64,000 nt of DNA from Thraustochytrium sp. TN22 (lineage: Eukaryota > Sar > Bigyra > Thraustochytrida > Thraustochytriidae), in NCBI GenBank assembly GCA_013306675.1, contig JABLUY010000059.1, forward strand, positions 70,568-134,567, given 5' to 3'. The translations under genes and the position numbers were made by a program. Below, in pieces: positions 19,155-41,531 of the stretch; the first letter of the stretch is position 1; each line of letters begins with the position of its first letter. The notes below the pieces were generated by a model. It saw only the letters and a program-made list of their open reading frames with translations, was not told the DNA's origin and did no database searches.

Positions 19155-22526
<3,372 letters not shown>

Positions 22527-23004
22527 CGTCGAGAGTTGTTGTTCTGCCCTGCCTGCCGGGCGCAGTGGCCGGCCAGAAAAGAGGCGAGCGACTCGCGGGT
22601 GAGGGCGAGACGGACAAAAAGATGACAAGGACGCAAGAACTTCACGGCGAAGCTGGCAGCCGCGCACTGCAGCCAGACCTTGAGCCGGTTGTGTATGCTA
22701 CCATGGTACAGCCAAAGATTGCTCCGATCTATTCGTCAATTGAACATCGCCATTTCTGAGCTTGGTGCAGGCCGTAATTGCAGAGACCGTCACACAGACC
22801 AAAACAAGATGCAGATGCACGCGTCTACTTCGGAACCCCACATGCGTAGCTCTCTGGCGCTCTCTGGCTTATGGAACAGCGTCATGGTGATCGTTACCAC
22901 AACCTCGGGTGCCTTGGAGAGACGAGGCCCGGACTCGAACGAGAACCGAGGAAAGGATCTACGCCGAGGCAGCCACAACATTGCGAAGCAGAACACAATG
23001 CAGA
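22527..23004. other. Intergenic stretch
   Basis: This lies between the TTI1 start and the 3' end of the small Rpp14-like gene. GC content is lower than in the genes. No gene or repeat recognised apart from a GCTACCATGGTAC-like palindrome near 22697. Confidence 0.45.
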
Positions 23005-23480
23005 TCACATGATAATGTCCAGCGAACGGTCTTGCGCCACAGCAGCAAAGTGCTCGTCGTCGCGAGCCGTCCAGCGACGAAGGCGGCAGGCCGCGCCCTG
23101 ATGGTACACGTAAAATGCGAGCGCCGTTTCAAGCTCAGCGACTCTGCGCAGGGTCGTGTCGTCAGCATCGCCTGCGTCGTCGACTGGCGCCAATGCAACC
23201 TACCTGGCCTTGTCCACGCGCACGGTGGCGACATTGTAGCGCATGTCCACCTCCTCCACGAAGCAGGGAAAGTTCGCGCTGCCCTTCTTCCCGTAAAAGG
23301 ACAGCAGCGCCGCGAGGATGACGGTGGTCACCACCTTGGCGTCCACCACCTCCTCGCGCGCCTCGCCGCCTTGCTGCTGCACTCGCCGCAGCTCCCTGTC
23401 GCGCTTGAGCGCCTCGTCAGCCTCCTCCGCCTCCTGGCCGCCGCCGCCGCCATCGCCGCCTCGGTCCCAGCACGCACAAC
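23005..23480 (-). CDS. Small spliced protein, possibly RNase P/MRP Rpp14/Pop5-like
   Basis: The exon ending at 23204 reads EEVVDAKVVTTVILAALLSF, then YGKKGSANFPCFVEEVD and MRYNVATVRVDKA. A 60-bp GT-AG intron (23203-23144, with a GCTGAC branch-like site) joins it in frame to VAELETALAFYVYHQGAACR and a tail ending SLDIIM at 23005. The pattern resembles the alpha-beta core of Rpp14/Pop5, RNA-binding subunits of RNase P and MRP. The start is unresolved. An ATG at about 23501 (MERLRLRLC) could join through a further 40-bp intron to EAEEADEALKRDRELRR. The segment is head-to-head with HEATR3. Coding status is likely; family is tentative. Confidence 0.5.
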
Positions 23481-23711
23481 CGCAGACGCAGGCGCTCCAT
23501 GGCGGCGCGAGGCAGCTGGGAGCTCCGCGCCGCCGCGAGCCCGCCCGCCCGCCCGCCCGCGCGCCCGCTGCCCGCGCGCCCGCTGCCCGCGCGCGGCGCC
23601 AGTGGGTTGGGGTCCTGCGCGCGCGCGCTTGGCGCCATGCAGGAGGGCGCGGCACGGGTGGCGCGCGGGGCCCGGCAGAGCAGAGCAGAACCGCTGGTCC
23701 TGCGCGCGCGC

Positions 23712-23742
<31 letters not shown>

Positions 23743-23743
23743 G

Positions 23744-25645
23744 ATGGGCAAGGCGCGGCGCACCAAGGGGCAGCGCAACGCGCGGCGGCGCGCGGCGGCC
23801 GCGGGCGCGGCGGGCGGCGGCGGCGCGGGCGGCGCGGGCGGCGCGGGCGAGGATGGCGCGGGCGGCGCGGCGGGGGCGCGGCGCGGCGGCGCAGGGCGCG
23901 CAGCGCGGCAGGAGGCCGTGGCCGTGGTCAAGTCGCTGCAGGCGGGCGACACGCAGCAGCGCGTGCAGGCGCTGATTGCGCTGGGCGGGATTTTTGAAGC
24001 CGGCCCGGACAAGGCGCAGGAGCAGAGCGAGGTCTTTGAGGTGCTGCACCGCGCCGGCGCGCTGCCGGCCTTCGTGGCACGGCTCACGGACAGCGACGTG
24101 TCGGTGCGGCATCTGACCAGCGGCGTGCTGTGCAACATGTGTCGCGCCGGCGGCAGCGAGGTGGCGGACCGCCTGGTCAAGGCTGGCATCCACACGGGCG
24201 CCATTGCGCTGGCGCGCCGCGCGCTGCCAGAGGACGCCGGCCCGCGCGAGGAGGCACTGCAGACGCGCATCCGCGCGCTCGACCTGCTCACGGAGCTCTG
24301 CGTATCGTCCGCCTCGGCGCTCGGCGCGCTGCAGGACCTCGACGGCACCACCTTCGCCTCGGTGGCGTCGCTGCTGCGGCTGCCGGCCGGCGAGGCACCG
24401 CCGCAGGTCGCGGCGGAGACCATCGAGGGCGCGGCGCGCCTGCTCAACGTGGCTCTTGAGGGCAACCCGGCGCTGGCTGGCTGCGTGGCCAGCAGCGCTG
24501 ACGCCAGCGGGGCACTCGCAGCGTTTTGCAGCGAGCCGGCCGCAGGTTCGGCCGTCGCCGAAGGCGGCGACACGGACCTGGCCAAGACGTGCGCGCTCTC
24601 GCACGCGCGCGCCTCCATGCACGCTGCGTCGGCGCTCCTGGCCGTGGCGGCCGCCGCTGGCGCGGCCAAGGGTGCGTCCGCAGAGGCGCAGCAGGCGCCG
24701 GCCAAGGCATTTGCACGGCTGCTGGACCTGGCGCGCGAGGTGCTCGACATGAACGAGGTGGACACCGAGACAGCCTCCCTGGTGCTCGAGGTGGTGACAA
24801 GCTGCTGCGCGCTGGACGCGGAGGAATCGGAGGCCAGCGGCGCGGGCGGCGCCCGCTGGAAGCACGAGCTGGCGCTGCGCCGCGCGTGCGCCGACGCCGT
24901 GACGCTCGACCCGATCGCGCAGCGCTGCGCGCTCATCATCAAGGGTAGCGCCGAGGCGCTCGACTCGGCCGTTGCCCAGGAGCTCGCGCCGCGCGCTTGC
25001 GGATTGTTGGACAATCTCGTGCAGAACGCGAGCTTGGACCGCGTCGCGGCGCTCGACCCGCAGGGCATGTGGGACGCCACGCACGCCGTGCTGCTCACGG
25101 CGCTGCGTGCCGCGCATGAGCAGGGCGACCAGCTCGCCTCGGCGCTCGAGGAGCTCACCTCCATGCTCACTGCCTTCCTCTGGTCGCTCGTGCGCCGCGT
25201 CAAGTCGTCTCACGAGGAGGCGCCCAAGCAGGCGCTTGCCTGGAAGCCCTCGCCCGCCCAGCTCGAGGAGATCATGCAGTTGCTGCAGACGGACCTCAAC
25301 GCTTCGGCGCGCACCAACCTGCTCGGCCTGCTCGGCGTCCTCGGCTCTGATGCCGCGGCGTGGGACGAGGCCACCCTTCACAAGTTTGGCGCCGCTCTCC
25401 TCGGCTCCGTCACGGATGCTTCCATACTGGCAGCGGTGCAGGCCATCGACTCTTCCATCGACATGTTTGCCGCAGACGAGCTCCACCCACTCTTTATGTC
25501 CTTGAACGGGCTCGAGGTCCTCCGCTCCGCCGTTCCGCGCCTCAAGGTCACGCTCATGGACAAGGACGCGCGCATCGACGCGCCGGCCGTGGCCCTGGTG
25601 CTTGGCAACCTGGAGGACTTTGTGCAGTACAAGATGGATGCGTAG
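23744..25645 (+). CDS. HEATR3/Syo1-like ribosomal-protein import chaperone
   Basis: 633 residues. The start MGKARRTKGQRNARRR gives the basic N-terminus typical of HEATR3 and fungal Syo1, which escort uL18 and uL5 into the nucleus for 5S RNP assembly. After a Gly/Ala-rich linker the rest is armadillo/HEAT repeats, beginning EAVAVVKSLQAGDTQQRVQA, then VRHLTSGVLCNMCRAGGSEV, LEVVTSCCALDAEES and LLGLLGVLGSDAAAWDE. The last stretch, LVLGNLEDFVQYK, resembles the end of the family. The frame is open 142 codons further upstream, but that part is antisense to the neighbouring gene and lacks coding character. Confidence 0.82.
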   Translation: MGKARRTKGQRNARRRAAAAGAAGGGGAGGAGGAGEDGAGGAAGARRGGAGRAARQEAVAVVKSLQAGDTQQRVQALIALGGIFEAGPDKAQEQSEVFEVLHRAGALPAFVARLTDSDVSVRHLTSGVLCNMCRAGGSEVADRLVKAGIHTGAIALARRALPEDAGPREEALQTRIRALDLLTELCVSSASALGALQDLDGTTFASVASLLRLPAGEAPPQVAAETIEGAARLLNVALEGNPALAGCVASSADASGALAAFCSEPAAGSAVAEGGDTDLAKTCALSHARASMHAASALLAVAAAAGAAKGASAEAQQAPAKAFARLLDLAREVLDMNEVDTETASLVLEVVTSCCALDAEESEASGAGGARWKHELALRRACADAVTLDPIAQRCALIIKGSAEALDSAVAQELAPRACGLLDNLVQNASLDRVAALDPQGMWDATHAVLLTALRAAHEQGDQLASALEELTSMLTAFLWSLVRRVKSSHEEAPKQALAWKPSPAQLEEIMQLLQTDLNASARTNLLGLLGVLGSDAAAWDEATLHKFGAALLGSVTDASILAAVQAIDSSIDMFAADELHPLFMSLNGLEVLRSAVPRLKVTLMDKDARIDAPAVALVLGNLEDFVQYKMDA

Positions 25646-25800
25646 TCGCATGTCCAATTCGAACTCGTAGATAACTAAGTTACACCGTGGAAAAGGCGAA
25701 AGACGATGCGTTATTTGAGTCAAAGCGAGTGAGAGGACAGAATGTTATGGAAGACAAAAAGGGTGGGGGTGGGGGGTGGGGGGTGATGCACGCAGCATCT

Positions 25801-28800
25801 TTACATGAGCGCACAGGCCTTGGAGCCGCCGTCAGCCTTGGCCTGAAAGGTGTGTGAAGCCTCGAGCGTTTTGTTCTTGCTAGTGAGGTCCTGGATGTCG
25901 TCCTCACGACGCGTGAGCTCCTTGGTGAGCTGAGACACCCGGTCCTCGAGCTCCTTGCGCGCCTGCTCGGCGGCCGACGTCTTGGATTCGGCCTCAAGGA
26001 GGCGGGCCTGCGTCTGCGCGAGCTGCGCCTCGAGGCGGACCAGGGCGCTTGTGCTGTCCTCGTCACCCGTGCCGGCTTCCTCACCTCCCGGGCCGGTAGC
26101 GCTCGGTTCGTGGCCGGAGCGGTCCTCCTGGCCGTCCTCACCACCGCCGATGCGGCGCACCGAGGAGGCGAAGGCGACGGACTTGCTGCCCGAGGCGTGT
26201 GGAGAGATGACCTCGTCCGTCGGGCTTGTAGGCGAGGCGAGGCCGGAGGGCGCAGCGGGCTCTGCGGCCAGTGTTCCCCAAACCTGGAACTCGAGAGGCT
26301 GGTTCTGAATGTAGGAGACAAAGGCATCGTCGACCCTGACGGAAAAGCGGTCCACGTGCTCGAAGCGTGGGTTGATGGTGTTCGACTCGCACGATGGCGT
26401 GCGGTGCGCCTCCAGGTTGAAAAACTTGTAGGAGACAGCGAGGTTGTTGCACAGTTTCTTTGGCAGGCCCTCGGCGGCGTGCACAGTGACGGCGACGCGG
26501 AGGTCGGTGCCTTGGATGTCGGCGAGCGTGGTCTCCTCCTCGGTGTCGAAGCGTTCGAGCGCTTCAATCTGCTTGTCGTCGAGCGACACGGACACGTGCA
26601 GCGCGCCGTCGGTCTTGCCCTGGAACTGAATCACCGGCGGCGTGTCGTCAATGTTGATGAAGAATCCGAGCGGCGCCAGCATGACATAGGCCTTGCCAAT
26701 GAGCTGCTCCTCGGGCGGGTCGTAGAATGGATCGTACTCCTGACCGTAAATCTCGTCCACCTCCGCCATGTCGCGGCCCGCGGCCACAAAATCCTCGTAC
26801 ATCTCACGCATGAGGAAGAGGCGGTTGACGAACTTCTCCAGAGACCAAACATTGGGAATGTCTTCGTCGCCAGTGCAGACGCGGATCCACACGGTGGTCT
26901 CCATGGCGTTGGCGATGGCGTCCGCGTCGGCAGAGTCGGCCGCCGCCGCGGCCTCGGCTGCCGTAGCGACGAGCTGCAGGCCAAAGGTCTTGCCTTTGCC
27001 GAGCTCGTCGGCAATGGCGTTCGCCTCCGAGACAAGCGGGAGAGTGGAGAGGATCTCCTTCTCGAGGACGGCGTTCTTGCGGCGCTCACTCTCGCGCTGC
27101 GCGTGAAGGCGCTGCGTCGTGTCAATCTGTTCCTGCAGCTTGGCCTGCAGAGCGCGCTGATCCGCCATCATGCGCTCACGCTCCGCGTCCGTGGCCGCGC
27201 GCGCCTCCTCCTCGGCGCGCCGGCGCTCCTCCGCCATTTGTGCCTCCAACGCGCGCACCTTGTCCTGCATGGCACGAGCCTCGCTCTCGGCGCGCTCGCG
27301 CGCCTCGCGCTCGCCCTCGGTGAGCGTCGTCATCTGCTGCTCGTTCAGCTCCAGCATGGCCCCGTCCCACGAGTGCTTGGCCAGGAGCGCCTCCTTGTCG
27401 GTCTGCGCATAGCCGCCCGGGCAGGCGGCAGGCACGACGCAGAGGAAGACGTAGTTGTTGCCGATCACGAGACGGTCTCCGTGCGCTAGCTTGACTGAGG
27501 TGGCCTGAGGCACCGGCTTACCGTTCACGAAGACCTTGGCTCCGGCGCAGGCCTCGAGCGTGAGGTCGTCGCCCATGCGTGCCACCGTGCAGTGCTCCTT
27601 CTGAATGCTCAGGCCGCTGAGCACGATGGTCTGCGGCGAGGGCGCGTCGGCGCGGCCCAGGCGCGCCAGGCCCTCCTCGAAGAAGTAGGTCAGCACGCCG
27701 GACATGAGCGGGTCTTGGTTCAAATTCATGATGTGTGGCGTGTGGCGCGCCTTGTCCTGATCTGTGCCCATGCCGAGCTTGGCCAACGCCGCGTCGCGCT
27801 GCTCCATGTGGTCGTGCGACTCCTTGAGGCGCTCCTCCCACGGTCGCTCCGACTCGCGCAGCAGGCGCTCGTTCTCTGTCATCTCCTCACGGATGCGGCG
27901 CACCTCGGCGGTACCAGGGCGGCTCGCCTCCTCGCCCGCCCCGCCGACCGTGCCCTGGGCAAGCATGCGCTTGAGCTCCTCGATCTCCTCCTTGAGGCCA
28001 CGGATCAGCTTCTGGTTTGGGTCCTCGTTTACGACGGCCTGGTTCTTGATCTGCTTGGCGCGGTCCGCGTACCGCAGCGTGCTGAGCGTCTCATCGTAGT
28101 TGACGCAGGACGGGCTGATGGCCGCGATCATCACGGTCTTGGCGTTTCCTCCCAGCGAGTTCTTGAGCAGGTGTGTCAGCACCGAGTCGCGGTACGGCAC
28201 CAGCACGTTCTTCTTCTTGGCGTTGGTGGCGCGCTCTGCGAGCGCCGAAATGACGTTGCCCAGCGCGGAGAGGCTCTGATTGATGGCGCAGCCCTCCTTG
28301 AGGCGGTCGCCGCTCGCGCCCGTGCGGTCGGCGCGCTCGCTGCCGGCCAAGTCGATCAGGCTGATCGTGGACACCTTGTCCATGGCCTTGCCGGCGTCCT
28401 TGTCCACGGTCGTTTGCGTCACGATCACCTGGAAGATGGTGTGCGCGCGCGAGGAGGTCGCATTCATGGCCGTGGCGGCTACCGTCCGTGCGCGCGTGCC
28501 GGCCTCCATCGCCTTGGAGATCTCCTCGTAGCTGCCCACGGCGCTCTTGGTGAGGTTCTGCACGTACGGCCCGGTTTTGGGGTGGTCGCGCACCTTGAGC
28601 CCCTTGGCATCGCCCTCGGTCGGGTTGAAAAGGTCGCGCACCTTCTCGTTGTAGATCTCCAGCATGCTCGCCTCCACCTTGAAGGTGGTGTCCGGGTTCC
28701 CGTTCTCCATGATGCGCTCGAAGATCTGTCTGCATGCGCGCGGCACGATGCCCTCGGCGCCCGGGTACCCAATCATCGAGTGCGACTTGCCGGCGCCCGT

Positions 28801-29094
28801 CTGGCCGTACGCGAACAGGCTCACGTTGAAGCCCTTCCACGCATTGTCCAGCACGTCTACGCCCAGGTCCTGCCACACCGTCTCTTGGGACGCGTGCTCC
28901 GGGTCATCTTCCGGCACGAACGAGTTGTACGAGAAGTCGAAGGTGTACGTCTTCTCCGTGCCCGTGTCTGGGTTCGTGATGAAGGTCTGCTGCGTCGCCC
29001 TGTCCATGCGAATGATGTTGCGCACGCCCTTGGCCTTCTCATACTCATGGATGAACGGCCGCACGCGAACCGCGACGCGCACCGCCTCCGCCAT
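25801..29094 (-). CDS. Kinesin-3 family motor with FHA domain and C-terminal CaaX box
   Basis: 1097 residues from MAEAVRVAVRVRPF. The N-terminal motor has the P-loop GQTGAGKSHSM, switch I NATSSRAH, switch II LIDLAGSERA and VPYRDSVLTHLLKNSLGG. The neck EDPNQKLIRGLKEEIEELKR is kinesin-3 type. An FHA domain follows (GLSIQKEHCTVARMGDDLTL ... LAHGDRLVIGNNYVF), then coiled coil and a KIF1-like C2 region (VAVTVHAAEGLPKKLCNNLA). A further coiled coil leads to the end KACALM. CALM fits a CaaX prenylation motif with methionine, favouring farnesylation. No PH domain is seen, although KIF1/Unc-104 relatives bind cargo membranes with one. A prenyl anchor could take that role (inference). Confidence 0.94.
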   Translation of the reverse strand: MAEAVRVAVRVRPFIHEYEKAKGVRNIIRMDRATQQTFITNPDTGTEKTYTFDFSYNSFVPEDDPEHASQETVWQDLGVDVLDNAWKGFNVSLFAYGQTGAGKSHSMIGYPGAEGIVPRACRQIFERIMENGNPDTTFKVEASMLEIYNEKVRDLFNPTEGDAKGLKVRDHPKTGPYVQNLTKSAVGSYEEISKAMEAGTRARTVAATAMNATSSRAHTIFQVIVTQTTVDKDAGKAMDKVSTISLIDLAGSERADRTGASGDRLKEGCAINQSLSALGNVISALAERATNAKKKNVLVPYRDSVLTHLLKNSLGGNAKTVMIAAISPSCVNYDETLSTLRYADRAKQIKNQAVVNEDPNQKLIRGLKEEIEELKRMLAQGTVGGAGEEASRPGTAEVRRIREEMTENERLLRESERPWEERLKESHDHMEQRDAALAKLGMGTDQDKARHTPHIMNLNQDPLMSGVLTYFFEEGLARLGRADAPSPQTIVLSGLSIQKEHCTVARMGDDLTLEACAGAKVFVNGKPVPQATSVKLAHGDRLVIGNNYVFLCVVPAACPGGYAQTDKEALLAKHSWDGAMLELNEQQMTTLTEGEREARERAESEARAMQDKVRALEAQMAEERRRAEEEARAATDAERERMMADQRALQAKLQEQIDTTQRLHAQRESERRKNAVLEKEILSTLPLVSEANAIADELGKGKTFGLQLVATAAEAAAAADSADADAIANAMETTVWIRVCTGDEDIPNVWSLEKFVNRLFLMREMYEDFVAAGRDMAEVDEIYGQEYDPFYDPPEEQLIGKAYVMLAPLGFFINIDDTPPVIQFQGKTDGALHVSVSLDDKQIEALERFDTEEETTLADIQGTDLRVAVTVHAAEGLPKKLCNNLAVSYKFFNLEAHRTPSCESNTINPRFEHVDRFSVRVDDAFVSYIQNQPLEFQVWGTLAAEPAAPSGLASPTSPTDEVISPHASGSKSVAFASSVRRIGGGEDGQEDRSGHEPSATGPGGEEAGTGDEDSTSALVRLEAQLAQTQARLLEAESKTSAAEQARKELEDRVSQLTKELTRREDDIQDLTSKNKTLEASHTFQAKADGGSKACALM

Positions 29095-29677
29095 CCTGTT
29101 GCTGGCCGGCCTCGACGCGGCTTGCGGACCGTCGTCGCGACGGACCTGCCGGCCGGCAGAGCCGAGCTCCACGAATGGATGCACGCCGCCCCTGCCTGAT
29201 GTGAGTGCGCGCGGCATCAATGCGCGCGCCGCACGGGCCGTAACGTGCATAAACCTAGAGAGGGGCACGTTACGCGCCGTGCCTTGCTGCTGCGTCGTTG
29301 CTTTCCACGCAGTGTCCGCCCCGTTGCCCCGGAAGAATCGCCCGGTGCTCCCCTAGACCGCCGTGGGAGGCAGCATGCGAGTCTAGGAGAGCCTTGACGT
29401 GTCCAGGTTCAGGTCGCGGCCGATGATTCGCTGCGCAAGGCCACGCACCCTGCCCCCCTCCCCGAGCCGCAGAACCCCTTCCAGTGATCCGGGTAACGCC
29501 TTCGGTCCCGGCCGAGCTCGGCGCGCGAATCGAGCTGGGGAGCCAGCCAGCCGGCGGCGCGCGGGAGAGCGGGCAGTCGGGCAACGCGGGGGTGGAGGCG
29601 GATAGAGCGCCGTAGAGGCGGGCGGGCATTCAGTCCCTTCTTCAAGTTCTTCTCGCGGCGCCGTGCCGCGCAGCGAG
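29095..29677. other. Divergent intergenic region, no gene seen
   Basis: About 580 bp between the kinesin start and a plus-strand gene. It is mostly GC-rich without evident repeats. No RNA gene recognised. Confidence 0.45.
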
Positions 29678-31048: not shown

Positions 31049-32863
31049 TCAGGCGGCCTCGTCCGGGGCATCGGGCGGCCGGAGGATGGCAGCCTGGGGA
31101 TGCGCCTCCTTGCCATCCTTCTGCAGATCGCGAAACTTGGCCTGGGCCGCCCGCGAGGCCTCGTCGCGCTGGAGCTGCTCCTGCAAGAGGTCAGTGTAAT
31201 AGCCGAGGCCCTTGGCGCCAAGTCGAAAGAGCATGCCGGGCTTCGCGCCCTGAAAGGTCTCATAGGGACCGTCAAAGGCGCCCTTGTCAAGGTCCACGTG
31301 CGGCACGGAGGGGCCCTCAGCAACAGCAGTTGTGGCCGCGGCGAGCTCCTCATAGCCCTCCGTGCACATGTCGTTGAGGCCGAGGTCCTCATTGTCCTCG
31401 AAGGAGCGCTCGTAGAGCAACTCGGTGAGGCGCGGCTCGGGCTCGGGCGCCGTGGGGCTGTAGATGAAGGAGTTGGCGAGCGGGTCGCGGATGACGAGAG
31501 TGAAGTCCTCCTCGCCAGCGATCATACGCTCGAAGCGGTGCTCAAGCTCGGCGAAGCGGTCACGCGCGGCCTTGTCGGCCGAGTCGCCGGTCTGAAAGTC
31601 GGCGGCCTGACCCTCGAAGAGCGTCTCCTTGACGAGAGTCAGCAGACCCTCCACGGTGGTGTACATGCCGCCGAGAGAGCCCTGGGTCACCTCGATCTCC
31701 AGCTCCGGAAGCAGGACGCCGGCAGAGTTGCTCTTGACAACGTCGCGCTTCATGTCGTCCATCCACTCACGCGCGTCGCGGCTCTCGCGGGACGGCACAA
31801 AGAGCGAGAGCTCCTTGCCCTTGGCCGGGATCGCGCCGCCGCCCTTGACCTCGCTGGTGCGGTAGCCACACGAGTCGCTCGGGCAGTCGAACGCCATGAT
31901 AACGATCTCCTGGAAGAAGGGGATGTCAGTGATGCAGGTCTTCGAGGTGCCCTCCGTGCCGCAGTTGGGGCAGTTGGACGGGATCTGGAAAACCTCCTTG
32001 TCCATGATGCGCGCCAGCGCCGCGTCTGTCTCAACCGGCTCACGATGGATGGTGGAGCCCTTGGGCGTCTGGAAGGTCTTGGCGAGCTCGGCGCGGCGCA
32101 GCTCCAGCGTGGCCTCGGCCTCGAGCTCCGTCTCGGTCTTGGTGGCCCCCGCGGCGGCCTCGTCACCGCCGTTCTCCTCGTCATACTCATAAGTCTCGAG
32201 CTGCAGGCCGAGCGCCTCGTTCTGCTCCTTCGAACGCACATAGCGGGTCACCACGAGGTTCGGGTCAGCGTGCGGCGCCTTGGGGTTCTCCAAGTACGAG
32301 TTCCCCGTGGGGTCGTCCAGCACGACGTGGCACGGGAACGAAAGGCCGCTGAGCAGCATGGCGAGACGTGCCACGAACTCGTCCACCTGCGCGGCCGTCT
32401 CGGGCGCTACGCGGCGGCGGTCCTCCTGGCTGTCCTGCAGCTGCTCGAGCGCCGTGTGCAGCACGCCCTCGATCGTGGTGAAGACACCCTTACCCTTGGG
32501 CACCTCCAGCTCCAGCTCCTCCAGGGTCAGCGTCGCATTGTCGCCCTTGACCAGCTGCCGCTGCAGGTCCGCCGCCGACTCCAGCCGCAGCCGGTGCCGT
32601 GTGCCGCGGTCCTGCACGCGGGACCCGCTCTGGATCTCGTTGTTCTTCCACCCGCAGTGCGGGCACCGAAAGCTCATGAGGATGATCTCCCTGAAGAACG
32701 GGATGTCCGTGAACAGCAGCCGCGTCTTGCCCTGCTTGTGGCAGTTCATGCACAGGCTGTCCAGCTCCGTCGGCGCGTCCTTGTCCACGTGCACCACATC
32801 GCCAATCTTCGGGTACAGCTCCTCGTCCTGCGCCGCCTGCGCCGCCTCCTGCTGCTCCTGCTG

Positions 32864-32903
<40 letters not shown>

Positions 32904-32914
32904 TCTGCGCCCAT
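31049..32914 (-). CDS. ZPR1: Zinc-finger protein ZPR1
   Basis: 621 residues from MGAEEQQQQQ. ZPR1 is a chaperone for eEF1A folding and shuttles between cytosol and nucleus. It has two zinc ribbons followed by ZPR1 domains. The first is SLCMNCHKQGKTRLLFTDIP with FRCPHCGWKNNEI, and the second IPSNCPNCGTEGTSKTCITD with FDCPSDSCGYRTSEV. In the second finger an extra two residues lie between the last cysteines (CPSDSCG), a change from the usual CPxCG. Domain blocks FTTIEGVLHTALEQL/YTTVEGLLTLVKETL and LDDPTGNSYLENP/IRDPLANSFIY are duplicated as expected. It is longer than human ZPR1 (459) because of a glutamine run at the start and linkers. Confidence 0.95.
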
Positions 32915-33770
32915 CTTGCCGCCGCTCTCGCCGCCCTTTCTCTCTCTCTCCTCGCTCTTTCTCGCTCGCTCGCCCGCTTCGCGCGCGATCGGGTCTGCCC
33001 GCCCGCCCGCCCGCCCGCCCGCGCCGCCCGCCCGCGCCGAGAGCCTCCGGAACTCCTGCGCCACCCGTGGCCCGCGCCGCGCTCGGCGCCACTTGCGCTG
33101 CCCTCACGCGCCGCGCGGCCAAGTGCGCTTTCGCGAAGGCCCAAGTTTGCCAACCCCACGCGGCCACTGTCAGGGCAAGAACAAGCTCCGAGCCACGGCG
33201 CCGTCACGGCCCGGGTCCGTTTCAAACAGCGGCAGAACGGCTGAACGGATGTTCCGGGAACGCGTTCTCATCCCGTTCCGCGGCGCTACAGTTGGGCGGC
33301 GGCGCCGCGGTACGAGCGCCTCACGTCAAGCTGGCAGGCAGACAGGTTTTGAATTCGAAGCGGCTCGCCGCGCGGCGCGGCAGCAGCTGCGCGCGGCGCC
33401 GCGCGACGCCTGCTGCCTGGAGCGGCGCGGCGCGGCGCGGCGCGCGCGTAGTCCCGGGGCGCGCCTGGCGTTCGTCGTGCATCCATCCGGGCCGCCTGCG
33501 CAGCGAGCGCGGCAGAGGGAAAAAGCGGAGCAGAACGGCGCGGCGCGGCGCAGCGCGCGGCACCCGGCGCGCGCGTCGCGTGCATGCGCGCGGGCGCCGG
33601 GCGGAACGGCGAGGCGAGGCGAGGCGCAGCGGACGGCGGTCGCAACGCGGCGCGCGAGGCGCGCCGCGGGCCAGGAGGATCTGCGGGGCCACCGCACGGG
33701 GCCTCTCTCGACCGCGCGCGGCGGCGCTGCGTCTGCGGAGCGGCGGCGCGCGCGCTCGTGCGGGCGCGCC

Positions 33771-36700
33771 ATGGCGGACCCGCAGCTCGCACCAGCTGGC
33801 TCGCGCAGCCCGGACCTCATGGCCGGCCTTGACGAAGATCTCGACGCCGACCTGGACATGGATGAGGGGGAGGACGACGAAGAGGAGGAGGAGCTCGCGG
33901 AAGAGGACAAAGCCGAGGCTGCAAGCGGCAGCGCGGGCCGCGGCCGCAGCGCCGTCTCGCAGGAGGACTTGGAGTCCCTCAGCGATGACGACTGCCAGGC
34001 TGACGAAGGGCAGGATGCCCTCGGCTCCCCTGGTGCTGATGGTGGTTCTGGAGCTGAGGCCGGGGCCGGCTCTGGTGCTGGCACCGGCGCCGCTGGTGCA
34101 GGACCCGAGTCGCAAAGCGAGGTTGGCGAGACGCCTCGGCCCGTGCGCTTCAGGTATGACTTTGAGCTGAGCCAGGTCTCCTCGCAGTCGTCCGAGGAGC
34201 ATGTCGGTTCCAAGCGCGCTGCGCTTTCGCCGGGCGGCGGTCTCTTGGACGAGGAGGTCTCCTGCAAGCGTCTGGCCGCGGCCCCGCGCGAGCCGCTGCG
34301 CCCACTCTCTGTCAACATGGCCAGCGACGATGGGCCGCGCTCGTCGCCTGGGCCACGCATCGCGGCGCTCTTCGACGATCTCGCGGGTGAGGATGCGGAG
34401 AATCGCGATTCAGCGGAACACGACGCACCAATCTCGCGCTCGAAGCGAGCCTCGCCCCATCACGACGCCGCCTCGCACATGAACAAGCTCCCTCGTTCTA
34501 GTGTGCACGAAAGTTCGCCTCACGAGAGTGAGCGCGCAACCGTGAGCAACGATGGCGACCGCGACCACGCTGCTGTACAAGAAGATCTGCAGTCGATCGC
34601 CGATCTCGCGCAGCACAGAGTGCGCAAGCCTGCCCCCAATGACCCGCAAAGCAGCATTGACGCTGTACAGAGCCTCTTTTCGACGAGTGGCGGCAAAGTT
34701 GTGAGCACCAAACGAGACGCTCTCCACAGGGCGGAAGCGTCCCTAGGCGGCGCAGGTAATCCGGGCACAGTGCAGAGCTTGTTTTCCACAGGTAGTGGCA
34801 AGGCGGTGAACATTGGCCGAGATGCGCTCGCCGCGGCTCGCCGCTCTCTCAAAAGCGACGCTGGACAGGTCGTCAACAGCGGAGCTGGCGAGTTGGAAAG
34901 CAATGCACGAATCGAGGTCGAGACGAAAGCCAAACGTGACTCCGAAGGTAAGACGCCAAGCAATCTCACAAGGAAAGAGCCAAGCGGTCTCAGAAGAAAC
35001 GCACCAACGGTTAACAGCAGCGGGAACCACAACCCTGTGCCAAGCCTTTTCTCAACTGGCGGAGGCAAAACCGTACACGTCGACCGGGCCGCTCTCGATG
35101 CGGCGCATACCGCGTTGGGCGACAGCGAGTCGGCCAAGTCTGTGCCAAGCCTCTTTTCCACTGGCAGTGGCAAAACGGTAAACGTCAACCAGGCTGCTCT
35201 CGCTGCGGCGCAGGGCGTGCTCGACGGCACCACACGTGTCAGCGGGGCTACGTCGAGGACTGGCACCGACACGGATGGCTCCGTGGCGAGTCTATTCTCT
35301 ACGGGCGGTGGCAAGGCGGTAAACATTAGCAGGGCTGCGCTCACTGCGGCGCAGCGCTCTCTAGGCGCTAGCGGTACGTCCGGTGGGACAAAGGACGGCA
35401 CCGTGCCGAGCCTTCTCTCCACAGAAGGCGAAAGGGCTGTGGCGAGCAGCAGCGAGGAGGCTCTGGGAGCAGCACAGAGCTCTGTTGACGACACGGCCGC
35501 GCCGAGCTTGTTCTCGACTGGCGGCGGCAAGACGGTCAACATCAGCAAGACCGCTCTCGCCGCTGCGCAGAGCGCCCTCAACGATGAAGTTCCCGGCGGC
35601 GCGTCCATGTCGGGTGGCGGTTCTGCCCCAAGCCTGTTCTCGACCGGCGGCGGCAAGGCGGTCAACATTAGCAAGACCGCTCTCGCCGCTGCGCAGAGCG
35701 CCCTCAACGATGAAGTTCCCGGCGGCGCGTCCACGTCGGGTGGCGGTTCTGCCCCAAGCCTGTTCTCGACTGGCGGCGGCAAGACGGTCCACATCAGCAA
35801 GGCCGCTCTCGCCGCTGCGCAGAGCGCCCTCAACGATGACGTTCCCGGCGGCGCGTCCACGTCAGGTGGCGGTTCTGCCCCAAGCCTGTTCTCGACTGGC
35901 GGCGGCAAGGCTGTCAACATCAGCAAGGCCGCTCTCGCCGCTGCGCAGAGCGCCCTCAACGATGGCGTTCCCGGCGGCGCGTCCACGTCAGGTGGCGGTT
36001 CTGCCCCAAGCCTGTTCTCGACCGGCGGCGGCAAGGCGGTCAACATCAGCAAGACCGCTCTCGCCGCTGCGCAAAGCGCCCTCAACGATGACGTTCCCGG
36101 CGGCGCGTCCACGTCGAGTGGTGCGCCTGCCCCAAGCCTGTTCTCGACCGGCGGCGGCAAAGAGGTCAACATCAGCAAGACGGCCCTCGCCGCAGCGCAG
36201 CGAAGCCTGCACGCCGACAGCAACACAGCCAGCAATGCCAGTGCGCCGAGCTTGTTTTCTACAGGCGGCGGCAAGACGGTGAGCGTCAGCAGGGACGCGC
36301 TCGCTGCGGCGCAGGCGGCGCTGCACAGCGGGCCGAAAAGTGCGGCGCCGTGTTTAAACAGGGAGGCGCTCGCGACCGCGGCAGCGAGCAAGCCACAAGC
36401 GGGCGGCGGCGCGCGAACGCCTGCTCGAGCCTTGGCACCTCAGCTGCGTGCCAAGGCGAAGCCGCAGAGTGAGGTAAGGAGAACGAGGCCTCGCGGGTTC
36501 ACGACTCCGTACAAGAAGGGCGCAGCCCCCGCGCTTGCAGCAGCTGCGAGCGCGCCGGCCAAGTTGCGTAGCGCCAAAATCCTGAAGGGGTCGCTGGAGG
36601 TGGTCTCGGCCGTGCGAGGCGCCCGGCGGCAGAAGCTGGATGAGATGGCTGGCTGCATCATGCGACGACGACCCACGGCTGCAGAATTGAGGGAGATCGC

Positions 36701-39080
36701 GGTGGAGCTCGGGACGCCCTCATGGCTGCTGGCGGTCACGAGCAGCTCGGCGTCGTGTGTCAAATTCGACGAGGCGTCGGGTGAGCCGGTGGCACTTGCG
36801 CCAGCAGCATGGAGCGAAGGCACGTCGGACGTGGCTCGGCGGCTGTTGCTGGCGCAATATGAGGGCGTGGATGAGCGGCAGGCGAGCGCCGCGTGGGTAG
36901 CCAACCACTACCGCTGGATTGTGTGGAAGTTGACGGCCTATCAGCGTGTGCTGGGCGGGGCTTCGTCGCAGCTGGCGCGCGCCTGCTCTCTGAGCGAAGT
37001 GGTGGTACGGCTCAAGTACCGGTACGAGCGCGAGTTTGTGCTGGCGGAGCGGTCGGCGCTGCGCAAGGTGCTGGAAAAGGACGCCGCTGCGGCCGCGCAC
37101 ATGGTCCTATGTGTTGCGTCGGTGGCGCCGCCGGGTCGTCCATATCATCTTGTGCTCACGGACGGCTGGTACGCCATGCAGGCGGTGGTGGACCCGGCAA
37201 TGGCGCAGCTGATTGCGAGGGGCCGCGTGGCGGAGGGCGTCAAGCTGCACGTGTGTGGGGCCTCTATGGTTGACAATGAGGACGGCGTGAGCCCTCTGGA
37301 GGTGGCGACAAACCAAGTGCTGGACAGCAGCAGCTGCAGCAGCGGCGGCGGCGCGCCTCGTGTCCAGCGGGCGGAGCCGAAGCTGCGCATCTCGCAGAAT
37401 TGCACCTTCCCGGCAAGTTGGGACGCTACCCTCGGTTTCCAGCGTAGCCGTGCGCCGCTTTGCAAACAGCTGGACAGGGTGCAGGAGTCGGGCGGCACCT
37501 TGGTCCCGGCGGTTCGTGTTGTGGTGGTGCGGCATTTTCGAATGCTCTTCTCGGAGCGCGAGCCGGGGTCTGGGCGGTGGGTGACGCGGTCGGCCGAGGA
37601 GGAGGAGGCGGCGCGGCGGCAGCACGACGAGGAGACTTGCCGCGCGCGCGAGGCCATCATCAGTGAGCACGAGCGTAGCTGGGAGGACCTCTCGCAAGGA
37701 TCTTCGTCCTCGTCCTCGCAGCCGCACCATCGAAAGCAGGACTGGCGCGACACAGTGGCGCGCGCGTTGGAGACCGACCCGCGTATCCCGCCGCGGCGAG
37801 AGGTCAAGACCAAGATGCGCGTGCTCCTGCAGCAGCCGGGTGGCGAGCGCTTCGCGGAGCTGACGGTGTGGACCCCGCACCCAGACTTTGTGCGCGATTT
37901 CCCTGAAGGCGCGCTGCTGGAGATTAGCGCACTCACAGTTATGGCGCGGCCGTCCTCGGGCCAGATTTCGCTGCGGTCCACGCTCGCGCTGGCGACCGGC
38001 AAGGAGACGCGCTTCAAGCTGCTGGACCGCCAGTACCGTGGCGAGGATGCCGTCAATCTCCGCTGCATTGCGCCCATCGCCGACCTCTGCGACCAGCGCA
38101 CGCCCTTTGTCGACTTTGCCGGCGTCCTCGTGCACAGAACTTCCCGCCACGCCTTCTTTTGCGGCGGCGACGGCGAGGGCGACATCGTCTCGGTTTTGCT
38201 CGCGCCCACGACTGCGCTGCCGGCCGATGCCGAGCCGGGCACGGTGGTGTGCGTGCGCGATGCGGCCGTTCAGGCGCGCGATCCGGCCTCGCAGTTTTTC
38301 GCATGCGCAGAGACCTTCCACACGGAGATGAGCGCCGGAGCGACCCACACCGACCCCCGCTGGCGCGCCTTTGAGGATCGGGCCGCCGATGTTTCGTCCA
38401 TTGCTTGGCAGGACGCGCGCTGCCGAGTAGAGGCCGTCCTGTCCACTGCAGTGACGCCCAACGTGGCCAAAAGGAGCCCTCCTACTCCCTCGCCGCGCGG
38501 GAGCTTGTCCGCTCCCTCGCCTCGCGCGGCAAGCCTCCGTCCTCAGCCGTCCCCGGCTCCCTCGCCGCAGCCGCAGCTCGCGACCGCCCTCACGGACGCG
38601 GAAGCGGCTCGCCAAGAGCGCATCCGCCTCTCGCGCGAGAAGCAGGCGCAGTGGCGGGAGAAGAATCGCGACCGTCTTGCTGCCCGCGCAGCTGCGGCCG
38701 CCGCCGCGCGCGGTCCTGGCCGCGAGCCCAAACTCGAGCTCTTCATTCGCGGCGCCGACATCACCGACATCATGGTGGGCCGCAAGCTGATTGACGTGCG
38801 CAGAGCCACGGAGCGCATCCAAGCGCTGCGCATGAACGACCTCATCCTCTACCGCGCCGGCTCGTACGAGCAGATCGTGCGTGTCAAGGCTGCCATCCCG
38901 TACAAGTGCGTCGCCAAAGCGCTCGAGCATGAGCCCCTCGCCAAACTGTTCCCACGTCTTGAGTCCGTGGACCAAGCCGCGGAGATCCTCGGTCAGCACA
39001 TCGACCCGAGCACAGCGGTGTATTCCGTCCACTTTGAGGTCCCCGACAAGGTCACGCTGCCCGCCTGGGCGAAGAAGTAA
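33771..39080 (+). CDS. BRCA2: BRCA2 orthologue with about 13 BRC repeats and C-terminal ASCH-like domain
   Basis: 1769 residues from MADPQLAPAGSRS. BRCA2 loads RAD51 at DNA breaks and stalled forks. An acidic N-terminus is followed at about residues 298-851 by BRC repeats such as PSLFSTGGGKAVNISKTALA (consensus FxTAxGK). From about residue 1000 comes the DNA-binding region: helical-domain motif WIVWKLTAYQRVL, then OB1 with LTDGWYAMQAVVDPAM, a short Glu/Arg-rich tower-like helix, and OB2-OB3. A charged linker (about 1600-1650) leads to a final 115 residues with the ASCH-like signature GRKLIDVRR (GxKxxExR with D for E) and LILYRAGSYEQIVRVKA. The ASCH-like domain is not part of animal, plant or fungal BRCA2. 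The frame is open upstream only through a GC-rich leader. Confidence 0.93.
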   Translation: MADPQLAPAGSRSPDLMAGLDEDLDADLDMDEGEDDEEEEELAEEDKAEAASGSAGRGRSAVSQEDLESLSDDDCQADEGQDALGSPGADGGSGAEAGAGSGAGTGAAGAGPESQSEVGETPRPVRFRYDFELSQVSSQSSEEHVGSKRAALSPGGGLLDEEVSCKRLAAAPREPLRPLSVNMASDDGPRSSPGPRIAALFDDLAGEDAENRDSAEHDAPISRSKRASPHHDAASHMNKLPRSSVHESSPHESERATVSNDGDRDHAAVQEDLQSIADLAQHRVRKPAPNDPQSSIDAVQSLFSTSGGKVVSTKRDALHRAEASLGGAGNPGTVQSLFSTGSGKAVNIGRDALAAARRSLKSDAGQVVNSGAGELESNARIEVETKAKRDSEGKTPSNLTRKEPSGLRRNAPTVNSSGNHNPVPSLFSTGGGKTVHVDRAALDAAHTALGDSESAKSVPSLFSTGSGKTVNVNQAALAAAQGVLDGTTRVSGATSRTGTDTDGSVASLFSTGGGKAVNISRAALTAAQRSLGASGTSGGTKDGTVPSLLSTEGERAVASSSEEALGAAQSSVDDTAAPSLFSTGGGKTVNISKTALAAAQSALNDEVPGGASMSGGGSAPSLFSTGGGKAVNISKTALAAAQSALNDEVPGGASTSGGGSAPSLFSTGGGKTVHISKAALAAAQSALNDDVPGGASTSGGGSAPSLFSTGGGKAVNISKAALAAAQSALNDGVPGGASTSGGGSAPSLFSTGGGKAVNISKTALAAAQSALNDDVPGGASTSSGAPAPSLFSTGGGKEVNISKTALAAAQRSLHADSNTASNASAPSLFSTGGGKTVSVSRDALAAAQAALHSGPKSAAPCLNREALATAAASKPQAGGGARTPARALAPQLRAKAKPQSEVRRTRPRGFTTPYKKGAAPALAAAASAPAKLRSAKILKGSLEVVSAVRGARRQKLDEMAGCIMRRRPTAAELREIAVELGTPSWLLAVTSSSASCVKFDEASGEPVALAPAAWSEGTSDVARRLLLAQYEGVDERQASAAWVANHYRWIVWKLTAYQRVLGGASSQLARACSLSEVVVRLKYRYEREFVLAERSALRKVLEKDAAAAAHMVLCVASVAPPGRPYHLVLTDGWYAMQAVVDPAMAQLIARGRVAEGVKLHVCGASMVDNEDGVSPLEVATNQVLDSSSCSSGGGAPRVQRAEPKLRISQNCTFPASWDATLGFQRSRAPLCKQLDRVQESGGTLVPAVRVVVVRHFRMLFSEREPGSGRWVTRSAEEEEAARRQHDEETCRAREAIISEHERSWEDLSQGSSSSSSQPHHRKQDWRDTVARALETDPRIPPRREVKTKMRVLLQQPGGERFAELTVWTPHPDFVRDFPEGALLEISALTVMARPSSGQISLRSTLALATGKETRFKLLDRQYRGEDAVNLRCIAPIADLCDQRTPFVDFAGVLVHRTSRHAFFCGGDGEGDIVSVLLAPTTALPADAEPGTVVCVRDAAVQARDPASQFFACAETFHTEMSAGATHTDPRWRAFEDRAADVSSIAWQDARCRVEAVLSTAVTPNVAKRSPPTPSPRGSLSAPSPRAASLRPQPSPAPSPQPQLATALTDAEAARQERIRLSREKQAQWREKNRDRLAARAAAAAAARGPGREPKLELFIRGADITDIMVGRKLIDVRRATERIQALRMNDLILYRAGSYEQIVRVKAAIPYKCVAKALEHEPLAKLFPRLESVDQAAEILGQHIDPSTAVYSVHFEVPDKVTLPAWAKK
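34664..36324 (+). repeat. BRC repeat array, including six 126-bp tandem copies
   Basis: Thirteen BRC-like units are counted, one degenerate (VPSLLSTEGERAVASSSEEA). Units beginning at 35499, 35625, 35751, 35877, 36003 and 36129 are spaced exactly 126 bp and are nearly identical in DNA. The earlier five differ in spacing and sequence, so the homogeneous block is recent. Confidence 0.9.
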
Positions 39081-39130
39081 GTATGTGACCACCCTTTTGA
39101 AGGATGCACACAAACAAACACAATGTCAGA

Positions 39131-40465
39131 TTACTCCGCTGCGATGGCCGAGCCGCCGCGCGCATAGCGCTCGACGATCTGCCGAGATGCGCGGGCGTCC
39201 TCGTCATCTTCGTCGCTATCCACGTCAGCCAAGAAGGCCTCGAGCGAGGTCTTGTCTTGTGACAAGGGAGTGTCGAAGAAGGCGTCGTCCGGCGAAGCAG
39301 ACGATGACGACGACGCTGCAGCCGGAGGGGGAGCCCATTTCGCGGGTTTCTCCCGCTCCGAATCCTGATGCACGAGCTTGAGCGTGGTCTCTCGTGGCGG
39401 ACTAGGTGCTTGCATGGATGAATCTCGTGCGGCGGCTGGAGAAGGGGCAGCTGGTGCAACAACAGCCGGGGCGGGAACTGCGACAGGGCCAGACACATCG
39501 GGCAAGGCAGCAGGAAGCGACGAGAGACCATGGACCATGGCAGGCTGACCCGATCCCGCTCGGCTGTGTGCGCGCCTGCGCGAGGACTCTGACAGACTCG
39601 CGCGGCCAGCGTGCAAGGAACGCTCGGTGAGCTGCGCCTGCTCAAGCAGCGCGCGATGCCGGCGGCCCAGAAACGCGAGGTTGAAGAAGGTGTGCAAAAG
39701 GTCGAGACCGCCGCCGTCCTTCATGGAGCAAGGGAAGTGAAAGAGTGCGTCGCGCGGGCGGCCTGATGCACGACAGAGCTCCTCAAGCGCCTCGTCGACG
39801 ACATCGACCGGCACCAGGTCCTCCTTGGTGCCCTCGAGGTCCGCGAAGTTGCGCAGCACGGCGCAGACGAGGTCTGGTGGCGCGTCGCGCAGAATTTCGT
39901 GCGCCTCTTCCCATGTGCGCTGCTTCCACGGGCTATAAAGCACGACGAGGCCGTCCGCGTCGCGGTAGACGTCGACCTGGCGCGCGTCGAGCGGCGCGAG
40001 ACGGTGCGCCCCTGCGGCGGGCCTTGAGCGGGGCGCGGTGAGGGGCAGGGGCGCAAGGCCGGCGGGCGCGTCCTCGTCGAGGTCGGCGGCCCGCTCTCGC
40101 GCGATTCGTTCGAGCTCATCGGCCGCGGCCGCCGCGTCCGTGAGGGCGACGTCCACGACATCCCAGGCCTCGAGCTTGGCCACTTCGTCGGACGCGCGAT
40201 TGCGCCAGTGCACATGGCTGACGGCGATCTCCGGCGTCGGCACGTAGGCACCAAGCTCTCGCGGCGCCCTGCCGCGCAGCCGCGCCAGCAGCGTGCTCTT
40301 ACCGGCGCCGCGCGCCCCGCGCAGCAGCACCTTGACGTTGCAGTTCACGCCCTGGCGCAGCCGCGCCTGCAGCCGCGGGTCGAGACGCTCCACGCCCGCC
40401 GCCGCCGCCACGCCGTCGCCCGCCGCCGCTGCCGCCGCCGCCGACGAAGACGAGGCCACGCCCAT
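39131..40465 (-). CDS. RABL6: Rab-like GTPase RABL6 (Parf/C9orf86 type)
   Basis: 444 residues from MGVASSSSAAAAA. A Ras-like domain follows a Gly/Ala-rich start: NCNVKVLLRGARGAGKSTLL (P-loop), IAVSHVHWRNRASDEVAKLE, AWDVVD in place of the usual DTAGQ, VLYSPWKQRTWEEAHEIL, and LRNFADLEGT at the G4 position. Then SMKDGGGLDLLHTFFNLAFL matches human RABL6 closely. The C-terminus FLADVDSDEDDED also matches. The non-canonical G3 and G4 are family features and suggest atypical GTP handling. MGVASS fits an N-myristoylation signal (G2, S6). It is divergent from the glycosyltransferase gene, 130 bp away. Confidence 0.88.
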   Translation of the reverse strand: MGVASSSSAAAAAAAGDGVAAAAGVERLDPRLQARLRQGVNCNVKVLLRGARGAGKSTLLARLRGRAPRELGAYVPTPEIAVSHVHWRNRASDEVAKLEAWDVVDVALTDAAAAADELERIARERAADLDEDAPAGLAPLPLTAPRSRPAAGAHRLAPLDARQVDVYRDADGLVVLYSPWKQRTWEEAHEILRDAPPDLVCAVLRNFADLEGTKEDLVPVDVVDEALEELCRASGRPRDALFHFPCSMKDGGGLDLLHTFFNLAFLGRRHRALLEQAQLTERSLHAGRASLSESSRRRAHSRAGSGQPAMVHGLSSLPAALPDVSGPVAVPAPAVVAPAAPSPAAARDSSMQAPSPPRETTLKLVHQDSEREKPAKWAPPPAAASSSSSASPDDAFFDTPLSQDKTSLEAFLADVDSDEDDEDARASRQIVERYARGGSAIAAE

Positions 40466-40595
40466 GCTGGCTGGCGGCGCGTGCGCGTCTTGGGCGGGCT
40501 CTGGCTTGGGTCTGTGACGGCGGCGGCGCGGCGCGGCCCAGTCCTCCAAGAGCTCGCTCGGCCTCGACCATACGACCCGGGTCAGCCCACTCGTC

Positions 40596-41531
40596 ATGCT
40601 GCGCCGGGCCGCGCTGGCGGCGCCCGTGGCGGCGGCGGCCGTCTACGTGGCGCCCTTCTTGCCCGCGCCCGACTGCTGGCCCGCGGCGGCGCGCGCGGCG
40701 GTCCGCGGCGCGCAGCGGCGGCCAGACGGCCTGGACCGCGACCGCGACCACGGCGACCCGGCGCAGCTGCTCAGCGTCGTGGTGCCCGTGTACAACGAGG
40801 GCGGCGCCGGCGTGCAGCAGCTGGCCCGCGAGCTGCAGCAAAAGGCGCGGAGGCCGGACCGCGTCGAAGTGATCTTCGTGGACGCGGGCTGCCGCGACGA
40901 CTCCTTCCACGGCGGGCGCGACGTCCTGCGGGCCTGCGCTGCGCGCCTGCACGACGTCCGCCTCGCGCACTCGACCTCAGGTAGGGGCCAGGCGCTGCGC
41001 CAGGGCGCGAGCGGCGCGGACGGGGACCGCCTGCTCTTTGTGCACTCCGACTGCGCGCTGCCTGATGGCTACGACGACGCCGTGCACAGGGCGCTCGACG
41101 ATCCAGAGGTGGTCATGTCTGCCTTTGAGTTCCGCATCGACTCGGGCCGCCTCCGCCAGGACATGCCGCACGTGCCTAGCCCCGCCAGCCTGGACCGCCT
41201 CGCGAAGGGCACCAACGTGCGTTCACACGTTCTGTGGCTGCCCTACGGCGACCAGGCGCTGGCCATGCGCCGCGCCGACTACGACCGCCTCGGCGGCTTC
41301 CAGCCCATGCGCATGATGGAGGACTTCGCCCTGGTCACGCAGGCCAGACGCGATGCGCTCCAAACCGGCAAACGACTGCACATCATCCCGCAGCCCGTGC
41401 TCTGCTCCCCGCGTAGGTGGCAGCAGCAGGGCTTGCTCGCCAACACTGCTCGCAACTGGGCCTTTGTCGCGGCCTACACTCTGCTCGGCGTCTCCCCGGA
41501 CACCATTTTCTCCTGGTATTACGTCAAATGA
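40596..41531 (+). CDS. Family 2 glycosyltransferase (TIGR04283-like)
   Basis: 311 residues from MLRRAALAAPVAAAAVYVAP, which could be a signal peptide, membrane anchor or organelle presequence. The GT-A fold shows LLSVVVPVYNEG at about residue 60, EVIFVDAGCRDDSF, the Asp-containing LLFVHSDCALPDGYDDAV, and LPYGDQALAMRRADYDRLGG with MMEDFALVTQAR near the catalytic centre. The order and the ending (RRWQQQGLLANTARNWAFVA) match the bacterial TIGR04283 transferases, found mainly in cyanobacteria and proteobacteria. The acceptor is unknown. No intron is needed. It may have been acquired from bacteria or a plastid-derived source (inference). Confidence 0.85.
   Translation: MLRRAALAAPVAAAAVYVAPFLPAPDCWPAAARAAVRGAQRRPDGLDRDRDHGDPAQLLSVVVPVYNEGGAGVQQLARELQQKARRPDRVEVIFVDAGCRDDSFHGGRDVLRACAARLHDVRLAHSTSGRGQALRQGASGADGDRLLFVHSDCALPDGYDDAVHRALDDPEVVMSAFEFRIDSGRLRQDMPHVPSPASLDRLAKGTNVRSHVLWLPYGDQALAMRRADYDRLGGFQPMRMMEDFALVTQARRDALQTGKRLHIIPQPVLCSPRRWQQQGLLANTARNWAFVAAYTLLGVSPDTIFSWYYVK

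What the first reader, a model, noticed from the sequence alone, without database searches (positions are those of the whole stretch)
38620..39080. BRCA2 fused to a C-terminal ASCH-like domain
The BRCA2 frame continues without a break past OB3 through a charged linker into about 115 residues with an ASCH signature (GRKLIDVRR, close to GxKxxExR) and a following LILYRAG...IVRVKA core and the helix LAKLFPRLESVDQAAEIL. ASCH/PUA-like domains are known for nucleic-acid binding (for example in TRIP4/ASC-1). I know of no BRCA2 with one. It could add RNA or modified-nucleic-acid recognition to recombination, for instance at R-loops. The frame continuity is direct observation; the function is inference.
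Basis: partly seen in the sequence, partly recalled or inferred. Interest (0 to 1): 0.78.

Follow-up and report, generated by a model that had tools for sequence, protein, structure and literature searches.

The report
BRCA2 carrying a C-terminal ASCH domain
In this single-celled eukaryote the gene for the DNA-repair protein BRCA2 runs on, without a stop, into an extra small domain of the ASCH type, a fold that grips DNA or RNA in some other proteins; it may give BRCA2 an additional hold on DNA, but that has not been tested.

The parts
33771..39080 (+). BRCA2-ASCH reading frame, 1769 codons plus stop; the choice of start codon is uncertain
   Evidence: Pfam BRCA2 repeats 2.4e-35, OB1 3.2e-29, helical 1.6e-10
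34671..36338 (+). BRC repeats: 9 Pfam stretches, 13 by a hand-made pattern (one degenerate); contains a 126-bp tandem array
36855..37034 (+). BRCA2 helical domain, C-terminal part
   Evidence: residues 1029-1088
37053..37445 (+). BRCA2 OB1
   Evidence: residues 1095-1225, whole profile 1-123
37446..38018 (+). OB2 region with its tower insertion (about 37662-37814), which looks roughly 50 residues shorter than in the solved BRCA2 chain 1miu
   Evidence: phmmer alignment to 1miu, whole-chain E 4.1e-35: first, significant stretch ends at query 298/chain 421; second stretch, from 332/506, has only 1.0 bit and is not significant by itself. Domain borders are recalled.
38019..38441 (+). OB3-sized stretch in the place of OB3; not recognised by sequence searches
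   Evidence: colinearity with 1miu; no OB3 hit
38442..38726 (+). linker: Pro/Ser-rich with seven S/T-P sites, then a basic stretch; no ATG on the forward strand and no GTRRGT donor
38727..39053 (+). ASCH domain (PH0355/PF0455/PF0469-like)
38778..38801 (+). ASCH signature GRKLIDVR (GxKxxxxR)
   Evidence: G, K and R shared by 16 of 16 aligned relatives; Asp replaces their Glu

Best explanation
It is a BRCA2 gene, found once in the assembly, whose protein ends in an ASCH domain tethered by a flexible, basic, S/T-P-rich linker of about 95 residues. Shown here: the open frame, the ASCH homology and a fold model. Inferred: the domain acts as an extra nucleic-acid grip next to the OB folds, raising the affinity of BRCA2 for resected DNA or its single/double-strand junction during Rad51 loading. 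This would work like the C-terminal TRIP4 region with its ASCH domain, which is needed for TRIP4 to raise the DNA affinity of the ASCC3 helicase. It is unlikely to be a YqfB-type amidohydrolase, because the position of the nucleophile is Asp.
Confidence: 0.6

Rival explanations
1. Two genes read as one: BRCA2 ends earlier and the ASCH domain is a separate protein whose first exon or start is hidden.
For: The genome has short introns: a DMC1-like gene on C99 is split, and by eye its two introns fit donors GTAGGT. The linker has a coding-score dip. In GC-rich sequence an open linker is not very rare by chance (inference, not computed).
Against: No forward ATG starts from 38390 to 38771; the next in-frame ATG, 38772, lies inside the domain at the end of its first helix; no in-frame stop before 39078; no GTRRGT donor between 37577 and 39077.
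Confidence: 0.08
2. The ASCH domain is mainly a protein-protein or docking module, or a passive remnant, and does not touch nucleic acid.
For: The TRIP4 ASCH domain also packs on ASCC3 over about 1321 A2 (PMC10076317, passage). About half of the conserved ASCH columns are changed and the domain's net charge is small.
Against: G, K and R of the cavity motif are kept, and frame and codon scores are intact over the domain, which a decaying remnant would not be expected to show.
Confidence: 0.2
3. The domain is a reader or eraser of a modified base, or an RNA-binding or RNA-cleaving module, bringing BRCA2 to RNA-containing structures such as R-loops.
For: ASCH relatives include the ac4C amidohydrolase YqfB and the ribonuclease ZmASCH (PMC6972931, PMC5615036, passages), and both are structural neighbours of the model. 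One weak PHROGs hit is named RNA-binding protein, E 0.0082.
Against: YqfB's essential Thr24 falls, by motif spacing, on Asp; nothing else in the locus points to RNA.
Confidence: 0.12

Closest known systems
PH0355 / PF0455 / PF0469, stand-alone ASCH proteins of Thermococcales (PDB 2z0t, 1s04, 1xne)
   Different: They are free proteins of about 110 residues with Glu in the motif; here the domain is fused to BRCA2 with Asp. Identity to the 16 relatives of A3 is 11-25%.
TRIP4/ASC-1 C-terminal ASCH domain
   Same: ASCH domain at the C-terminus of a eukaryotic protein that serves a DNA-handling machine; DNA binding reported (PDB titles).
BRCA2 (1miu, 1mje, 1iyj)
   Same: BRC repeats; helical domain, OB1 and the start of OB2 in the same order.
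   Different: Added ASCH domain; apparently shorter tower insertion; OB3 not recognised by sequence.
YqfB ac4C amidohydrolase and ZmASCH ribonuclease
   Different: Catalytic Thr24 of YqfB is Asp here; ZmASCH residues were not mapped.

Membership tests
ASCH superfamily | GxKxxxxR motif (wording of PMC5615036, passage) | tested here: met
   GRKLIDVR at 38778-38801; G, K, R as in 16 of 16 relatives. The Glu of the narrower GxKxxExR form (PMC6803910, passages) is Asp here; YqfB has Thr24 there, so Glu is not universal in the superfamily.
[quoted passage not shown]
ASCH superfamily | Sequence homology to known ASCH proteins | tested here: met
   Direct Pfam PF04266 match of the query: none.
YqfB-type ac4C amidohydrolase | Thr-Lys-Glu triad with oxyanion-hole Arg | tested here: not met
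   K and R kept, Thr position is Asp; the Glu74 equivalent was not mapped.
BRCA2 | BRC repeats | tested here: met
   PF00634 2.4e-35, 9 stretches
BRCA2 | Helical domain and OB1 | tested here: met
   PF09169 1.6e-10 and PF09103 3.2e-29
BRCA2 | OB2 with tower | tested here: inconclusive
   The significant 1miu alignment reaches query residue 298, into OB2 and the tower base; the following stretch has 1.0 bit only
BRCA2 | OB3 | tested here: inconclusive
   An OB3-sized stretch follows, but no Pfam or PDB sequence match
BRCA2 | Rad51 partner in the same genome | tested here: met
   PF08423: 9 matches, some of them pieces of one gene, best 2.0e-121
BRCA2 | Mediates Rad51 loading on RPA-coated ssDNA | not testable with these tools
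   needs biochemistry

The most novel reading that the evidence does not exclude
The fused ASCH domain stands in for a reduced BRCA2 tower: this BRCA2 lost much of the tower insertion, whose tip was proposed to contact duplex DNA (recalled), and gained a C-terminal fold that binds duplex DNA in TRIP4, so that junction recognition for Rad51 loading has moved to a different domain.
Probability: 0.12. Interest if true: 0.75.

Novelty: new variant of a known kind. Interest (0 to 1): 0.52.

Why it matters
How BRCA2 recognises the place where Rad51 should be loaded is, to my knowledge, not fully settled. A natural fusion to a small DNA- or RNA-gripping domain is a ready-made test: deleting it, or moving it onto another BRCA2, asks directly whether an extra grip at the C-terminus changes loading. 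It would also link the ASCH fold to homologous recombination; no paper holding both 'BRCA2' and 'ASCH domain' was found in the library searched.

Tried and rejected
Searches that gave nothing: viral contigs for the domain, with the query alone, alignment A1 and alignment A2; phage records by tblastn, E up to 1. Alignment A5 of four bacterial relatives gave two viral loci that were not pursued. Own-genome Pfam ASCH PF04266 found nothing, not even the BRCA2 domain, so it is not evidence that other ASCH proteins are missing. TRIP4 zinc finger PF06221 had no match, but only 1 of 14 control genomes rang and none over the cut-off, so this is inconclusive. NCBIfam gave one irrelevant weak hit, E 0.072; PHROGs one weak hit named RNA-binding protein, E 0.0082.

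A single-sequence fold failed, pLDDT 34.9. One search compared the query with an alignment that contained it, so it is circular and not used; one search replaces it. Searches are circular in the same way for the three archaeal PDB rows. One search added only 3iuw (E 0.014) and 1wlm (E 0.65).

Two short 18S patterns had no exact match in the assembly, so the ribosomal DNA may simply not be held.

Considered and rejected: an antisense origin (the 668-codon antisense frame 37107-39113 was not searched for homology; the forward frame scores best of six in the windows from 38520 to 39059; the codon table was trained on ZPR1, the rest of this frame and a 2461-codon frame without Pfam hits); an in-frame intron in the linker (no GTRRGT donor), which would in any case leave the fusion.

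Literature: no paper with BRCA2 plus 'ASCH domain', none with BRCA2 plus labyrinthulomycete, four with 'ASCH domain' plus 'homologous recombination', none on BRCA2 by title or abstract start, none with TRIP4, 'ASCH domain' and 'double-stranded DNA' from 2018 on; the other listings showed no such fusion in titles or abstract starts. Only titles and abstract starts of listed papers were seen, apart from passages of PMC6972931, PMC5615036, PMC10076317, PMC7641849, PMC6803910 and PMC8394001.

Full report
What is there. The forward frame that starts at ATG 33771 stays open to the TAA at 39078-39080, 1769 codons. Pfam finds BRC repeats (2.4e-35, nine stretches), the helical domain (1.6e-10) and OB1 (3.2e-29). 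A significant alignment to solved BRCA2 (1miu, E 4.1e-35) carries on from there into OB2 and the base of its tower; the rest of OB2 aligns with 1.0 bit only. The stretch after it has about the length of OB3 but is not recognised by Pfam or by a PDB sequence search, so 'past OB3' is colinearity, not a hit. The OB1 family and the C-terminal domain were each found once in the 37.9 Mb assembly, and Rad51 relatives are present (nine matches, some of them pieces of one gene, best 2.0e-121).

Is the tail an ASCH domain? Pfam on the tail alone gives no family, so the claim needs indirect routes. A plain PDB sequence search with 123 residues returned exactly three entries at E up to 10: 2z0t (0.00027), 1xne (0.0018), 1s04 (0.0029), all small archaeal proteins. 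Their relatives were collected from bacterial and archaeal genomes: 42 loci, translated. In alignment A3, 16 of 17 members, all but the query, hit Pfam ASCH at E up to 0.1. A profile of 41 of the 42 gives the query 35.1 bits; the best of 5000 shuffles had 9.3. Among 581 open segments of the window the BRCA2 frame is first with E 3.9e-8 and the next has 2.6. Sub-profiles agree in direction: 26.4 bits (19 PH0355-like), 29.1 (18 PF0469-like) and 14.9 (4 bacterial) against shuffle maxima of 9.2, 11.4 and 8.7; in the whole-window scan the bacterial profile alone was not significant, E 0.048. Profile alignment without the query gives 95.6% probability; the reversed query 0.1%. The reverse search is the cleanest: a Thermococcus protein against the whole genome finds one place at E up to 10 (one candidate passed the first look), this tail, E 0.0046, 29% identity.

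Motif. GxKxxxxR is kept as GRKLIDVR. G, K and R are invariant in the 16 relatives; Asp replaces their Glu. Of 21 columns where at least 13 of 16 relatives agree, the query keeps 11. In YqfB the equivalent position is Thr24, which is proposed to act as the nucleophile, and Thr24Ala was inactive (PMC6972931, passages). By motif spacing the query has Asp there, so YqfB chemistry is unlikely.

Is it one protein? In-frame ATGs after residue 1400 lie at 38328 (inside the OB3-sized stretch), 38772 and 38832 (inside the ASCH domain); no forward-strand ATG in any frame starts from 38390 to 38771. The other two forward frames have five stops each over 38300-39080. The coding score for the frame is 0.25-0.53, best of six frames, in the windows covering 38520-39059, but dips to -0.14 over 38400-38579, the Pro/Ser-rich part. 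The genome does have short introns: a DMC1-like gene on C99 is split, and by eye its two introns fit donors GTAGGT. No GTRRGT donor lies between 37577 and 39077; three weaker GTRNGT sites lie at 38249, 38877 and 38906. A fusion is the simplest reading, but it is not proven without RNA.

How it may work. In the ASCC3-TRIP4 helicase complex, TRIP4 lowered the EC50 for T48 DNA from 551 to 53 nM, and a TRIP4 fragment lacking the lasso peptide and ASCH domain did not (468 nM) (PMC10076317, passages). PDB titles report TRIP4 or its ASCH domain with duplex DNA. An ASCH domain on a flexible basic linker beside the BRCA2 OB folds could act likewise as a second grip on DNA. That step is inference. The tower insertion of OB2 looks about 50 residues shorter than in 1miu, a comparison that leans on the 1.0-bit stretch; the tower tip was proposed to touch duplex DNA (recalled, not looked up). 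The bold reading is that the ASCH domain takes over that contact. The linker carries seven S/T-P sites, so control by cell-cycle kinases, as at S3291 of human BRCA2 (PMC8394001, passages), is possible but untested.

Limits. No eukaryotic sequence collection was available, so conservation in other species is unknown. The organism group is unconfirmed. The literature searches showed no BRCA2-ASCH fusion in the titles and abstract starts listed, but the library holds only openly licensed papers.

Verdict. A real ASCH domain and very probably a real fusion: a new variant of BRCA2. The RNA or R-loop role is not supported by anything specific found here.

Noticed in passing
35505-36200: 126-bp tandem array, 5.5 copies at 94% match, made of BRC repeats: a recent expansion of BRC units, reminiscent of the expansion named in the title of the Trypanosoma brucei BRCA2 paper PMC2408642 (search listing only).
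   Followed up: partly
39077-39082: A GTAAGT donor-like hexamer overlaps the stop codon; splicing there would extend the protein past the ASCH domain, antisense to the convergent gene. Probably chance.
   Followed up: partly
37662-37814: The BRCA2 tower insertion looks about 50 residues shorter than in 1miu, with a Ser-rich stretch in it (leans on a 1.0-bit stretch).
   Followed up: partly
39131-40597: Convergent gene on the minus strand with a P-loop-like region, only weak Pfam hits below their cut-offs, ending about 50 bp from the BRCA2 stop.
   Followed up: no
31049-33064: ZPR1 gene on the minus strand, head to head with BRCA2.
   Followed up: no
19155-29268: A TTI1 gene and a kinesin with an FHA domain, each in a single long open frame, and a SYO1-like repeat protein.
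   Followed up: no
L046 (G000:C99:118700-119900): The DMC1-like gene is split by two short introns, and a short stretch of its C-terminal coding sequence appears twice.
   Followed up: no
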